A stretch of DNA of 9,032 nt from a candidate division SR1 bacterium CG_4_9_14_3_um_filter_40_9 (lineage in GTDB: Bacteria; Patescibacteriota; Gracilibacteria; Absconditabacterales; Absconditicoccaceae): NCBI GenBank assembly GCA_002791215.1, contig PFWQ01000044.1, forward strand, positions 1 to 9,032. Direction: 5' to 3'. How positions within the stretch are numbered: the stretch's first letter is position 1; every line of letters starts with the position of its first letter. The notes under the pieces are model-generated. The model saw only the letters and a program-made list of their open reading frames with translations, was not told the DNA's origin and did not search any database. Positions 90 through 8,897 of the stretch are shown in pieces. The translations under genes were made by a program, and so were the position numbers.

Positions 90-422
90 TTAGATAGAAT
101 CTAAGTTAAATTCTTTTTTCATCTTTTCGATAACTTTTACTCTTTCTTCAATAATTTTAAACATGTCTCCTAAAATTTTTATCTTTTCGGTAGCATTTTG
201 CGTATTAAGTGATTGCGTATATAGATTATCTTGTCTACCCTTGAAGCTCATTAGCTTATACTGATATAAGGTTAAACGCTCATTTCTCTTTTGAATTTCT
301 CACATCTTCCGAACTGTAAATACACTTACAGATAACGCCACTAATCATATTCCGATTGTTATTCGTTGTGTAAGTTCTGATGATGACAAATGGTGCCAGT
401 AAGTTGTAAAATGGTGGTACAT
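90..422 (-). CDS. Small single-helix membrane protein with a C-terminal coiled coil
   Basis: The frame runs from ATG (422) to TAA (90-92) and gives 110 residues if the two internal TGA codons (residues 26 and 41) are glycine; under the standard code it is shattered, so an ordinary gene caller would miss it. Residues about 21-37 form one hydrophobic helix (ITIGIGLVALSVSVFTV). CGA at residue 20 and CGG at residue 38 sit exactly at its two ends; read as tryptophan they would make a typical aromatic belt. Residues about 41-105 are charged and helical (KIIEERVKVIEKMKKEF), likely a coiled coil. The gene starts 26 bp after the lipoprotein gene on the same strand, so the two probably form an operon. 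No Shine-Dalgarno sequence is visible. I do not recognise the family; function unknown. Confidence 0.7.
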
Positions 423-448
423 CACTACACAAATAATTCTAGATAAAA

Positions 449-823
449 TTAATATTTAAGTAATTTTTTATTTTCAATACATTTTGGTAGGAAATCTTCA
501 AGAGATTCGGCCAAAAATTTACCTGCTGGACTATTAATACAGAAATCTATTGAATTTCCTCATTGACCGGTACATTTATTGATAAAATCTAAATTTTCTT
601 GTTGTTTTTCTTCTTGTAAAATCATACACTCTTTACGATACGTTTCATTTTGTTTGGTTTCTTCTTGTGAGAGTTGCCCCTGATCTTCTTGATTTTGCTG
701 ATCTATTTGTTGTTGTAGCAACTCATTCTGTTGTTTGAGCTGTTCAATTTCTTCCTTGTTTGTACAACCGGCGAGTGTCACCATAGTAATCAGTGATAAT
801 AAAATTGTTAGTAACTTTTTCAT
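449..823 (-). CDS. Small Q/E-rich lipoprotein
   Basis: Starts at ATG (823). An in-frame TGA (560-562) would end it at 87 residues; read as glycine (residue 88) it continues to TAA (449-451), giving 124 residues with the tail QGGNSIDFCINSPAGKF. The N-terminus is a clear lipoprotein signal: MKK, a hydrophobic stretch, then lipobox LAGC with the lipidated cysteine at residue 20. Residues about 23-75 are very rich in Gln and Glu with heptad-like leucines, probably a coiled coil standing off the membrane. The tail holds several cysteines (CTGQ, FC, KC) that could form disulfides outside the cytoplasm. A possible promoter (TTGACT at 873-878, TTTATG at 849-854, minus strand) lies just upstream, but transcripts from the 1214-1241 promoter could also reach it. 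Family not recognised. Confidence 0.8.
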
Positions 824-829
824 GATTAG

Positions 830-1212
830 TTTTGAGAAAAGAATAAACCATAAATTCGCCTGCTTTGAAAGTAGTCAAATAGAGCTGAAATGCAACAGAT
901 CTGCGAAGCTTCTTTACTTATCCCTGCGGGGCTTTTTATGTAACTTTCTGGCATTGCCCCAGAAAGTCACCAAAGAGGTCTAGCCTTACGCAAACTTGCC
1001 AACTCTCTCTACAGACTAGTCATCCACGTTTTTTCTTGCTATGCATGGTAGTCCATCTAGCTCAAACCCCACTAACCGGCTACAGCGTGGCCCCATTTCG
1101 CCCTAAGAGAGAATTGCTTGTCTGTAATATCGGTGGCTTCGGACATGAGTGCTTCAGGCGGTTTTCTGATTTTTTTATTTTTTATTCGTGAACATCGAGA
1201 CCTTTTTTGGTC
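830..1212 (-). ncRNA. Candidate structured RNA or long leader (no protein gene seen)
   Basis: No convincing protein reads through this stretch, although TGA is not a stop here. Its 880-1170 part is visibly richer in G+C than the flanking AT-rich DNA. On the minus strand a 12-bp stem (940-951 with 959-970, one pair a G-U only on this strand) encloses a loop whose GGGGC can pair with GCCCC (complement of 928-932) after an A-rich linker, an H-type pseudoknot shape. A second hairpin lies at 1038-1061. A good minus-strand promoter sits at 1214-1241. I compared it by eye with tmRNA, RNase P, SRP and 6S RNA and found no decisive match: the T-loop of tmRNA and the P4 core of RNase P are absent. It may be a leader of the lipoprotein gene. 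The ends are approximate. Confidence 0.3.
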
Positions 1213-1213
1213 G

Positions 1214-1241
1214 ATTATAATAGCGTCCACGCACCAATCAA
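1214..1241 (-). promoter_or_regulatory. Sigma-70-like promoter, minus strand
   Basis: On the minus strand a TTGATT -35 (1236-1241) is followed after 16 bp by a consensus TATAAT -10 (1214-1219). It would start transcription near 1207, into the candidate RNA and then the lipoprotein operon. The TATAAT box is also nearly symmetrical (ATTATAAT), so a + strand reading exists, but it has no -35. Confidence 0.5.
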
Positions 1242-6562: not shown

Positions 6563-6588
6563 GTGAAAATAATTTATAAAGTAAAATT

Positions 6589-8484
6589 TTATGCTTTTCT
6601 AGATTTAAACTCTTCATCACATTGTTTCAGAAACTCATCGACCGGCATGACGTATTGTTTCTTGGATCTGTATTCTCTCACGCTCACTGATTTGTCAGCT
6701 TCTTCTTTTTCTCAGATTATAAGTATGTATGGAATCTTTTCTATTTCTGCGTTTCTAATTTTTTTGGAGAAGGAATTGTCGCTTCCGTCCACCTCTACTC
6801 TGAGGCCTGCCTTTTTGAACGTGTCGCGAAGTGTGTTGGTATACGCGTTGAATGGCTCTGCTACGGGAACTAATTTGATCTGCACCGGTGCAAGTCGGAC
6901 GGGAAATGCTCATGCGTAGTGCTCGATGAGAATTCACATAAATCTCTCCGGTGAACCGACGATGGCTCTATGAATCATGACTGGCGTCTTGTCTTGGCCG
7001 TCGCTATCTTTGTAGGTAAGTTTGAATCTTTGCGGCATGATGAAGTCCAATTGAATAGTAGAAATCTGGAATTCTCTCCCGAGCGAATCTGTAGCAACGA
7101 GGTCCATTTTTGGTCCGTAAATAGCCGCTTCTCATTCAGCCCTGATGTATTCAATTTTATTCTCTACGAGAATTTCCTCCAATAATTTTTGTGATTTTTC
7201 TCGGGTTGCCGGCTCTCCCAAATATTTTTCTCTCTTGCTGGGATCTCGCAAAGATAATCTGATAGTGTATTTCATGCCATAGGTTTTCATCGCTTTTTTT
7301 ATGATTCATAGCACCGACAAAAATTCTTCTTTGATCTGATCTTCGCGACAAAAGCAGTGTCCGTCGTCCTGACAAAAACATCTCAAACGCGTTAGACCTA
7401 TCAATTCACCTGGTTTTTCGTCGCGGTAGAGATTTGCAAAATCTGAAATCCTCACCGGCAGATCATTATAACTTCTTCCGCGAGATGCGTAGATCTGTGT
7501 GTGCTGCGGACAGTTCATCGGCTTAAGGAAATATTCTTCCTCTGAATAATTGGAGATTACTCTCATCATATCTTCCTTGTATTTTTCGTAGTGACCAGAA
7601 ACTTTGAAAAGTTCAGCCTTGTTGATATTGGGCGTATGGACTTCTTCATAGCCGATATCGCTCTGCAACTCGTTGGTATATCTGATGATTTCTTTCCTGA
7701 TGATATTTCCTTTGTGCGTATATAATGGTAAGCCTGGACCGACTAATTCTGAAAACACAAAAAGTCAGAGTTCCTTCCCGAGTTTCCTGTGGTCACGTTT
7801 TTTCGCCTCTTCGATGAATTCGATGTGTTTCTTGAGGGCGTCTTTATCTTCGAATGCAAATCCGTAAATCCTCGTCATCATTGCGTTTTTCTCGTCACCT
7901 CTCCGGTAGGCTCCAGCGATCTTATCGAGCTTGAATTGGTCAGGATTGATGTCTTTTGTATTTTCTACGTGTGGTCATTCACACATGTCTATGAAAACAA
8001 CGAAGTTGTTTTCTAAGTCGAAAGTCGAAAGTCCAAGGTCTAAGGTTTTTAAATAATTGTTTATCTTCTCATATTTCTCCAAATATCATGGCTTAGAGTC
8101 CTTCAGTAATTTATTTTTTGCGACAAGAGGGATGGAATTGATATAGTAAGAGAAAACAGTCTCGCCATCTTTTTTGAATCAATCGATCAAGTCGATCTTG
8201 AATTCTTCGCCGAGCATGGTGATGATTTCTTTGGCCTGATTGTAATCAAATTCAACTCTCGTGAATGGCTGATTCTCTTTGATGATCTTCTGGAGGAACT
8301 TGTTCAAATCTTTCAAATACTCTTCCTTGAATTCTATATCAGGAGAGAAAATGAAGTCATAATAAAATCAGGTATCTATCGCAGGTCCGATTCCGAGTTT
8401 TGCGAGCGGATCTACCGATCTCAGCACTGCTTGCGCCAAAATATGTGACAACGAATGGCGACATTTGAATAGTTGGTTTTCCAT
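6589..8484 (-). CDS. thrS: Threonyl-tRNA synthetase
   Basis: ATG (8484) to TAA (6589-6591), 631 residues with ten TGA codons as glycine. The enzyme charges tRNA-Thr. It begins directly in the editing domain: RHSLSH (H10, H14) and CEGPH (C168, H172), so the N-terminal TGS domain is absent. The stretch between these sites is about 50 residues longer than in E. coli. The class II core follows: MNCPQH (C325), FCQDDGH (H376) and IEHYAG (H522) match the catalytic zinc ligands; GEAAIYGPKMDLV, ISTIQLDF and MIHRAIVGSPERF are motif 2-3 regions. The C-terminal anticodon-binding domain ends at KSRKA. CGA/CGG codons at 6895, 7201, 7246 and 7903 replace tryptophans, most clearly in FPV(W)LAPVQ and AY(W)RGD. 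The S23 gene lies 47 bp upstream and rubrerythrin 26 bp downstream. No Shine-Dalgarno is visible. Confidence 0.96.
8013..8045 (-). repeat. Degenerate heptamer tandem repeat inside thrS
   Basis: On the minus strand the units TTAGACC, TTGGACT, TTCGACT, TTCGACT stand in tandem, followed by TAGA. They encode part of the extra segment LKTLDLGLSTFDLEN of the editing domain. Heptamers of this TTCGACT/TTGGACT type are more usual in intergenic repeats. Confidence 0.7.
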
Positions 8485-8493
8485 GTTACGTCA

Positions 8494-8521
8494 ATTTTAA
8501 ATGATAAATTTTAAATGATAG
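8494..8521. repeat. 14-bp tandem pair, one arm of an inverted repeat around the S23 gene
   Basis: ATTTTAAATGATAA (8494-8507) and ATTTTAAATGATAG (8508-8521) are direct tandem copies. Positions 8494-8509 are the exact reverse complement of 8906-8921 on the far side of the S23 gene. Confidence 0.85.
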
Positions 8522-8535
8522 ATATTGGTATCTAT
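8518..8535 (-). other. Hairpin over the S23 stop codon
   Basis: ATAGATA and TATCTAT form a perfect 7-bp stem with a 4-base loop, covering the TAG of the S23 gene. It is AU-rich with only a weak T-run after it, so a terminator role is doubtful; it may be an RNA-processing element. Confidence 0.4.
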
Positions 8536-8897
8536 ACTTTTTTTGATTGCAAACTTTCTGCCGTTGTTTTACTTATCTTTGTAAGAATATTTATAATGCT
8601 TTCTATTTCTATCATATATTTAGTATAATTATATTTCACGGTTTGGCTTTTATCCAAAAGTTTTAATCGATATTTTGTTTCTCTGGCTTTTTTTAAAGCT
8701 ATATATATTTTTGCTAGGAAATCTTTTTTTGTTTGTCATCCGATAGACTCTTCTATATTTGCTCAAATACTTGTTGCACTTCTTAAAAGTTGTTTAGATA
8801 ATACAAATTCATTTTTCTCTTTTAAATATTTGTAGAGATTGATTATTTCTATGGCAAGGTCAAAACTCTTCTGCTGTATCAAATTATCTTTTATCAT
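8532..8897 (-). CDS. Four-helix-bundle protein, 23S rRNA intervening-sequence (S23) family
   Basis: ATG (8897) to TAG (8532-8534), 121 residues, the usual length, with two TGA codons as glycine. The family signature is clear: QKSFDLAIEIINLYKYL, LSKQLLRSATSIGANIEES and IGGQTKKDFLAKIYIALKKA, with TGA at the conserved glycines of SIGANIEE and IGGQ. CGA at 8667-8669 stands where the family has Trp (ETKYWLKLL). S23 proteins were first found encoded in intervening sequences of 23S rRNA and are common as lone genes in CPR bacteria; they form pentamers and their function is unknown. The gene is bracketed by a perfect 16-bp inverted repeat (8494-8509 / 8906-8921), the architecture of an intervening sequence, and lies 47 bp upstream of thrS. 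It could be co-transcribed with thrS. Confidence 0.93.

What the first reader, a model, noticed from the sequence alone, without database searches (positions are those of the whole stretch)
309..8669. CGA and CGG appear to mean tryptophan
In-frame CGA/CGG codons are rare (about a dozen) and the diagnostic ones sit at family tryptophans: FPV-CGA-LAPVQ (6895-6897) and AY-CGG-RGD (7903-7905) in ThrRS, T-CGA-EK at the usual WEK position (7201-7203), KY-CGA-LKLL in S23 (8667-8669), ITN-CGA-FTY in the permease (2018-2020), and both ends of the helix in the small membrane protein. Conserved arginines use AGA, AGG, CGT or CGC. ThrRS seems to have no TGG at all. As I recall, a sense-codon change of CGA/CGG to Trp has been predicted computationally for Absconditabacterales; here it can be read from individual conserved sites and coexists with UGA-Gly and with TGG.
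Basis: partly seen in the sequence, partly recalled or inferred. Interest (0 to 1): 0.93.

Follow-up and report, generated by a model that had tools for sequence, protein, structure and literature searches.

The report
CGA and CGG encode tryptophan here
In this bacterium, which likely belongs to Absconditabacterales, the codons CGA and CGG, which mean arginine in nearly all life, stand where related proteins have tryptophan, so they are predicted to be read as tryptophan; the change was already predicted for that group in 2021, and the enzyme that would load tryptophan differs from its relatives at residues that likely touch the tRNA anticodon.

Summary
Genome-wide, with CGA, CGG and TGA masked during alignment, CGA faces Trp at 30 of 84 positions in a standard-code outgroup and CGG at 25 of 66; Arg is faced once each. 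In conserved stretches: 13 of 23 and 12 of 17, no Arg. Against a family member: Trp codons 47 of 58 and 34 of 46, no Arg codon. CGT, CGC, AGA and AGG stay Arg; CGA plus CGG outnumber TGG. No UCG or CCG tRNA is in this 88.5%-complete assembly; in relatives the 20 tRNA-UCG and 11 tRNA-CCG I fetched all have Trp-type G73 and no A20 (selected sets). The reassignment is already published as a computational prediction for Absconditabacteria (PMC8629427). Not found in my paper searches: in 24 TrpRS of this family Gly271 (reads C34) is Lys in 21 and Ser227 (reads A36) is lost in 18, while Thr225, Lys274 (C35) and Glu155 (G73) are invariant. That suggests how one TrpRS could serve CCA, CCG and UCG. No protein or charging data exist here.

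The parts
6589..8484 (-). threonyl-tRNA synthetase gene; its four predicted tryptophans are all CGA or CGG, no TGG
7903..7905 (-). CGG codon, ThrRS residue 194 (AYwRGD), family Trp
   Evidence: Trp in 99 of 104 distant homologues; CGA in relative L125, TGG in L126 and L127
7246..7248 (-).
   Evidence: Trp in 91 of 104; TGG in L125 and L126, CGC in L127
7201..7203 (-). CGA codon, ThrRS residue 428 (ATwEKSQ), family Trp
   Evidence: Trp in 97 of 104; CGA in L125, TGG in L126 and L127
6895..6897 (-). CGA codon, ThrRS residue 530 (FPVwLAPVQ), family Trp
   Evidence: Trp in 97 of 104; TGG in L125, L126 and L127
6086..6088 (-). CGA codon, rubrerythrin residue 159 (KIHwVCSKCGY), two residues before the first rubredoxin-domain cysteine
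   Evidence: Trp in 1ryt, 1b71, 9fj2
8667..8669 (-). CGA codon, 23S rRNA-intervening-sequence (S23) protein residue 77 (TKYwLKLL), family Trp
   Evidence: Trp in 111 of 111 distant homologues; PF05635
2018..2020 (+). CGA codon, ArsP_1-type permease residue 11 (ITNwFTY)
   Evidence: Trp 67, Arg 34 of 120 homologues
2444..2446 (+). CGA codon, permease residue 153 (LGGwILG)
   Evidence: Trp 64, Arg 29, Phe 17 of 120
2585..2587 (+). CGG codon, permease residue 200 (KESwDII); weaker site
   Evidence: Arg 49, Trp 41, Phe 12, Leu 11 of 120
1997..1999 (+). CGA codon, permease residue 4; variable column, not diagnostic
363..365 (-). CGA codon in a small membrane protein; no family to test it
309..311 (-). 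CGG codon in the same small membrane protein; no family to test it
3582..3584 (-). CGA codon in the C-terminal part of the P-type ATPase ORF; not tested against a family

Best explanation
In this genome CGA and CGG stand at tryptophan positions and not at arginine positions, and they are predicted to be translated as tryptophan, likely by tRNAs with UCG and CCG anticodons that tryptophanyl-tRNA synthetase would charge. Shown by alignment: both codons face Trp genome-wide; AGA, AGG, CGT and CGC face Arg; UGA faces Gly; UGG faces Trp. Shown in relatives of the same family, not in this incomplete assembly: the tRNA-UCG and tRNA-CCG fetched carry discriminator G73 and lack A20, so they lack an arginine mark and carry a tryptophan mark. 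Inferred: TrpRS of this family accepts G36 and U34 as well as A36 and C34, because most members have lost Ser227 (reads A36 in the E. coli enzyme) and/or Gly271 (reads C34, now mostly Lys), while Thr225 and Lys274 (read C35, common to CCA, CCG and UCG) and Glu155 (reads G73) are unchanged. Inferred: ArgRS ignores the two tRNAs for lack of A20. The organism likely belongs to Absconditabacterales.
For: after removal of overlapping ORF pairs, 400 kb of outgroup G051, 103 gene pairs, 30,120 aligned codons: CGA W 30/R 1 of 84; CGG W 25/R 1 of 66; TGG W 37/R 2 of 106; CGT R 37 of 71; CGC R 31 of 71; AGA R 425 of 740; AGG R 118 of 197; TGA G 330 of 554. Conserved context: CGA W 13 of 23, CGG W 12 of 17, R 0. 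Log-likelihood Trp over Arg 164 (CGA), 152 (CGG). 400 kb of family member G004, 121 pairs, conserved context: CGA with Trp codons 47 of 58, CGG 34 of 46, Arg codons 0. Trp matches lie in 20 (CGA) and 23 (CGG) genes against G051. The single Trp of own TrpRS is CGG; in the family that site is TGG 16, CGA 5, CGG 3 of 24, against TGG in 18 of 18 standard-code outgroups and 3 of 3 UGA-recoded sisters. tRNAs: 20 of 20 fetched UCG and 11 of 11 fetched family CCG have G73; none has A20 by eye; the one outgroup tRNA-Arg(CCG) and the three own tRNA-Arg have A73 and A20. TrpRS: Gly271 kept in 3 of 24 family sequences against 18 of 18 outgroups and 3 of 3 sisters; Ser227 in 6 of 24 against 17 of 18 and 1 of 3; residues 155, 225, 274 unchanged in all 45; contacts from PMC12135181 (passages). 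RF2 (prfB) over cut-off only in G051 of 12 genomes searched.
Against: No UCG or CCG tRNA was found in this assembly; it also lacks tRNAs for Cys, His, Lys, Tyr and a UGA-reading Gly tRNA, so this says little. The CCG tRNAs came mostly through a model built from two Trp-like CCG tRNAs and the own Trp tRNA, so an Arg-type CCG tRNA could have been missed; the UCG places were picked by eye from 50 pattern matches. Without the context filter one CGA and one CGG face Arg in G051, and three CGA of 134 face Arg codons in G004. Permease 2585 has more Arg than Trp in homologues. TrpRS changes are in one clade, so counts are not independent; other TrpRS positions also differ between family and outgroup; Asp226, a third C35 contact, is Asp in only 10 of 24 against 14 of 18; G008 keeps both Ser227 and Gly271 although it has tRNA-UCG; G017 and G027 keep Gly271; sister genomes G048 and G057, without a CCG-pattern match, have Asp227. 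The UCG tRNAs are not especially like tRNA-Trp(CCA) (mean identity 0.51). No peptide or charging data.
Confidence: 0.93

Rival explanations
1. CGA and CGG are read ambiguously, mostly as tryptophan with some arginine, during an unfinished reassignment.
For: A few positions face Arg without the context filter (1 of 84, 1 of 66 against G051; 3 of 134 CGA against G004). The codons coexist with TGG.
Against: In conserved stretches Arg is 0 of 23, 0 of 17, 0 of 58 and 0 of 46, as for TGG. CGA plus CGG outnumber TGG (150 to 106 and 233 to 135 aligned codons), which would be odd for an ambiguous codon.
Confidence: 0.05
2. Plain NCBI table 25: CGA and CGG are arginine and the window's sites are chance substitutions.
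For: Close homologues in public protein collections show Arg at the sites, and permease 2585 has more Arg than Trp.
Against: Genome-wide alignments and exchange with TGG at single sites in relatives; Trp-type UCG/CCG tRNAs in the family.
Confidence: 0.01
3. Only the window or a few contigs carry the change (contamination or a segment with its own code).
For: The assembly is in 95 contigs with a 1.65% contamination estimate.
Against: Trp matches at CGA lie in 20 genes and at CGG in 23 genes in the G051 test, 48 and 43 in the G004 test. I did not count them per contig.
Confidence: 0.01

Closest known systems
CGA and CGG to Trp with UGA to Gly in Absconditabacteria (PMC8629427, 2021)
   Same: Same two codons, same new meaning, same UGA-Gly background, tRNA-UCG and -CCG with tryptophan-like identity. 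One published assembly (GCA_002791215.1) has CGA 30, CGG 24, UGG 35 per 10,000 in Pfam alignments, close to the 27.9, 21.9 and 35.2 per 10,000 aligned codons measured here.
   Different: Nothing in the code itself. This may be that assembly or a sibling; contig names are withheld. The words tryptophanyl and TrpRS do not occur in its main text.
NCBI table 25 (SR1 and Gracilibacteria)
   Same: UGA = Gly.
   Different: Table 25 keeps CGA and CGG as Arg.
CGG to Trp in Anaerococcus and RFN20 Bacilli (PMC8629427)
   Same: CGG to Trp, with a tRNA-CCG of tryptophan-like identity in the published account.
   Different: There tRNA-UCG is missing and CGA presumably stays Arg; here both codons change and relatives have tRNA-UCG.

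Membership tests
Absconditabacteria CGA/CGG-to-Trp code | CGA and CGG align with Trp columns | tested here: met
Absconditabacteria CGA/CGG-to-Trp code | CGA and CGG do not align with Arg columns | tested here: met
   0 Arg in conserved context in both comparisons; 1 of 84, 1 of 66 and 3 of 134 without the filter
Absconditabacteria CGA/CGG-to-Trp code | UGA is glycine, RF2 absent | tested here: met
   TGA faces Gly in 330 of 554; best prfB match of own genome below cut-off
Absconditabacteria CGA/CGG-to-Trp code | tRNA-UCG and tRNA-CCG with G73 and without A20 in this genome | tested here: inconclusive
   none in the incomplete own assembly; present in relatives
Absconditabacteria CGA/CGG-to-Trp code | CGU and CGC stay Arg, with a tRNA-Arg(GCG) | tested here: met
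   own tRNA-Arg(GCG)
Absconditabacteria CGA/CGG-to-Trp code | The organism is a member of Absconditabacteria | tested here: inconclusive
Absconditabacteria CGA/CGG-to-Trp code | Trp found in the protein at CGA/CGG | not testable with these tools
   needs mass spectrometry
NCBI table 25 | CGA and CGG are Arg | tested here: not met
CGG-to-Trp code of Anaerococcus/RFN20 | CGA stays Arg | tested here: not met
   CGA faces Trp in 30 and Arg in 1 of 84

The most novel reading that the evidence does not exclude
The sense-codon change is built into the synthetase: TrpRS of this family has dropped its reading of anticodon bases 34 and 36 (Gly271 to Lys, Ser227 lost) and relies on C35 and G73, so that one enzyme charges three anticodons (CCA, CCG, UCG). 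The enzyme's own single tryptophan is written CGG here, so TrpRS depends on the very code it creates.
Probability: 0.45. Interest if true: 0.72.

Novelty: already known. Interest (0 to 1): 0.5.

Why it matters
Sense-codon reassignments in bacteria are few; PMC8629427 reports five clades and says that only experiment can settle them. This genome is a strong case because the reassigned codons outnumber UGG and the signal can be read at single conserved sites. Close homologues in public protein collections show Arg in place of Trp, which matters for annotation and peptide searches. The TrpRS residues give a concrete, testable account of how a synthetase might admit new anticodons.

Tried and rejected
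TGG drifting to glycine: in the unfiltered comparison own TGG faced TGA (Gly) of G004 at 15 of 93 places. Printed out, these cases looked by eye like antisense or spurious ORF pairs; after dropping overlapping ORF pairs (184 to 121 for G004, 117 to 103 for G051) TGA is not among the six commonest codons facing TGG. Rejected as an artefact. The unfiltered counts (CGA 30 W, 4 R of 89; CGG 25 W, 6 R of 75) are superseded.

tRNA-UCG/CCG in the own genome: ARAGORN with introns and with a low threshold, Infernal up to E 10, a custom scanner and two patterns gave nothing credible. The low-threshold ARAGORN list includes tcg and ccg entries among many evident false ones; they are not used.

Pattern specificity: the reversed control pattern matched about as often or more (73 against 50 over 32 genomes), so a pattern match alone is no evidence; only the fetched places that fold as tRNAs are used.

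Origin of the tRNAs: UCG has mean identity 0.51 to tRNA-Trp(CCA) and 0.43-0.50 to Arg, Gln and Lys tRNAs; CCG 0.59 to Trp and 0.50-0.58 to those others (the CCG group there includes one outgroup tRNA). Origin left open.

TrpRS change as a mark of the reassignment in sister orders: G046 has a tRNA-CCG with A1:U72 and G73 but A20 (by eye); G048 and G057 have no match to the CCG pattern but Asp227; no conclusion.

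Full report
What was checked. The window is contig C92 of an unnamed 922,604-base, 95-contig genome estimated 88.5% complete; I held 901,579 bases of it, GC 0.38.

The window's own sites. I aligned ThrRS (read with CGA/CGG as Trp) with the 120 homologues listed of 7,982 found. At the four sites Trp stands in 99, 91, 97 and 97 of the 104 more distant ones; Arg appears in 5-11 of the 16 closest and in 4-8 of the 104, which fits same-code relatives translated with Arg, though I did not trace them. 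The S23 site is Trp in 111 of 111 distant homologues and Arg in 6 of 8 close ones (119 of the 120 listed were used, the window's own left out). The rubrerythrin site is Trp in the three displayed alignments that cover it. Permease sites 2018 and 2444 are mainly Trp or Arg; at 2585 Arg (49) exceeds Trp (41) of 120; 1997 is uninformative. In the relative L125 (76% identity) the four ThrRS sites are CGA, TGG, CGA, TGG; in L126 all four are TGG; in L127 three are TGG and 7248 is CGC; the ThrRS of L126 and L127 have no TGA and may use another code; L128 gave no ORF.

Genome-wide test. I masked CGA, CGG and TGA so that they could not steer the alignments, paired own ORFs with those in 400 kb of a standard-code outgroup (G051, GC 0.55) by best reciprocal match, and dropped pairs overlapping a better one (117 to 103 pairs; 30,120 codons). 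CGA: Trp 30, Arg 1 of 84. CGG: Trp 25, Arg 1 of 66. TGG: Trp 37, Arg 2 of 106. CGT: Arg 37 of 71. CGC: Arg 31, Trp 1 of 71. AGA: Arg 425, Trp 3 of 740. AGG: Arg 118 of 197. TGA: Gly 330 of 554. With at least 5 of 10 identical flanking residues and no gap: CGA Trp 13 of 23, CGG Trp 12 of 17, TGG Trp 11 of 25, no Arg at any of the three. The likelihood of Trp over Arg is 164 and 152 natural-log units. Against 400 kb of G004, a family member of GC 0.27, in the same context: CGA faces Trp codons 47 of 58, CGG 34 of 46, TGG 38 of 54, and none faces an Arg codon; without the context filter CGA faces Arg codons 3 of 134. Reassigned codons outnumber TGG: 150 to 106 and 233 to 135. G004 itself has few: unfiltered, CGA faces Trp 4 of 10 and CGG 1 of 2 in G051.

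Who reads the codons. ARAGORN finds 29 tRNA genes in the part held, with Trp-CCA, Arg-GCG, Arg-UCU and Arg-CCU but no UCG or CCG anticodon; searches of the whole assembly agree. It also lacks tRNAs for Cys, His, Lys and Tyr and a UGA-reading Gly tRNA that it should have, so absence is weak evidence. Among relatives of the same family I fetched 20 places, picked by eye from 50 matches to a UCG pattern in 32 genomes (the reversed control pattern matched 73 times, so the fold, not the match, is the evidence). All 20 fold as tRNA-UCG with G73; 1:72 is A:U in 9, G:U in 9, G:C in 2. Two tRNA-CCG came from a first pattern; nine more came from 40 high-scoring places of a model built from those two and the own Trp tRNA, searched in 17 genomes. 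All 11 have A1:U72 and G73, but this route favours Trp-like tRNAs, and the other genomes were not examined exhaustively. None of the 31 has A after the D-loop GG (by eye). The one outgroup tRNA-Arg(CCG) and the three own tRNA-Arg have A73 and A20. These are the identity rules used in PMC8629427 (passage).

TrpRS. PMC12135181 (passages, including part of the abstract) reports that in E. coli TrpRS Thr225, Asp226 and Lys274 read C35, Ser227 and the Thr225 backbone read A36, the Gly271 and Tyr270 backbones read C34, and Glu155 reads G73. I aligned 24 TrpRS of this family (23 of the 34 family genomes with a match; G010 has two), three from UGA-recoded sister families, and 18 of the 20 standard-code class members (the rest were not cut out). 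Glu155, Thr225 and Lys274 are invariant in all 45. Gly271 is Gly in 18 of 18 and 3 of 3, but Lys in 21 of 24 of this family. Ser227 is Ser in 17 of 18, 1 of 3, and 6 of 24. Asp226 is Asp in 14 of 18, 3 of 3 and 10 of 24. At least one of 227 and 271 is changed in 23 of 24 against 1 of 18 (Fisher p 6e-6 for 227 and 7e-10 for 271, which ignores shared ancestry). Exceptions: G008 keeps both; G017 and G027 keep Gly271; sisters G048 and G057 have Asp227. Other TrpRS positions also differ between groups, so the pattern is suggestive only. It is what one would expect if the enzyme must accept CCA, CCG and UCG, which share only C35. The one tryptophan of own TrpRS is CGG; across the family that site is TGG 16, CGA 5, CGG 3.

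UGA. RF2 scores over its cut-off only in the outgroup G051 among the 12 genomes searched; the weaker matches in the family are likely RF1.

What is known. PMC8629427 (section 11 read whole, passages) predicted CGA and CGG to Trp for Absconditabacteria on top of UGA to Gly. One of its assemblies, GCA_002791215.1, has nearly the same usage as here, so this may be that assembly or a sibling. PMC13092985 (2026; passages) restates it. In the listings of my seven paper searches I saw no experimental test and no report of the TrpRS changes; the library holds only open-licence PubMed Central papers, no preprints. The placement in Absconditabacterales is inferred: one listed ThrRS homologue is named Absconditabacterales (59% identity), and listed permease homologues are named SR1, Absconditabacteria or Gracilibacteria, among many unnamed ones and some from other groups.

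Verdict. The observation and the reading are right; the reassignment is already known as a prediction for this lineage. What is added is the genome-wide test here, the tRNA identity survey in the family, and a specific hypothesis about TrpRS.

Noticed in passing
window 2946-4976, - strand: The P-type metal ATPase ORF matches only the last part of E1-E2_ATPase and the hydrolase domain, so the usual N-terminal half is missing, and it has a long extra C-terminus; by eye no N-terminal partner stands upstream in the ORF list.
   Followed up: partly
window 1381-1844, - strand: HicA toxin family gene (PF07927) beside a small partner matching DUF1902, arranged like a HicAB toxin-antitoxin pair.
   Followed up: no
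G010:C1:8115-9086 and G010:C5:255139-256104 (L272, L282): One family member has two TrpRS genes with different residues at 225-227 (TDA and THS), which might divide the three anticodons between them.
   Followed up: partly
P0002-P0017 (ThrRS), P0246 and P0249 (S23): Close homologues in public collections show Arg at these Trp sites, and P0246 and P0249 show Trp where the window has Gly (TGA), so the group's proteins seem to be stored under several wrong codes.
   Followed up: partly
L284 (G046:C5): A UGA-recoded sister genome has a tRNA-CCG with A1:U72 and G73 but A20, a mix of Trp and Arg marks.
   Followed up: partly
window 5382-5927, + strand: DUF5667 protein with an acidic, repeat-like C-terminus.
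   Followed up: no
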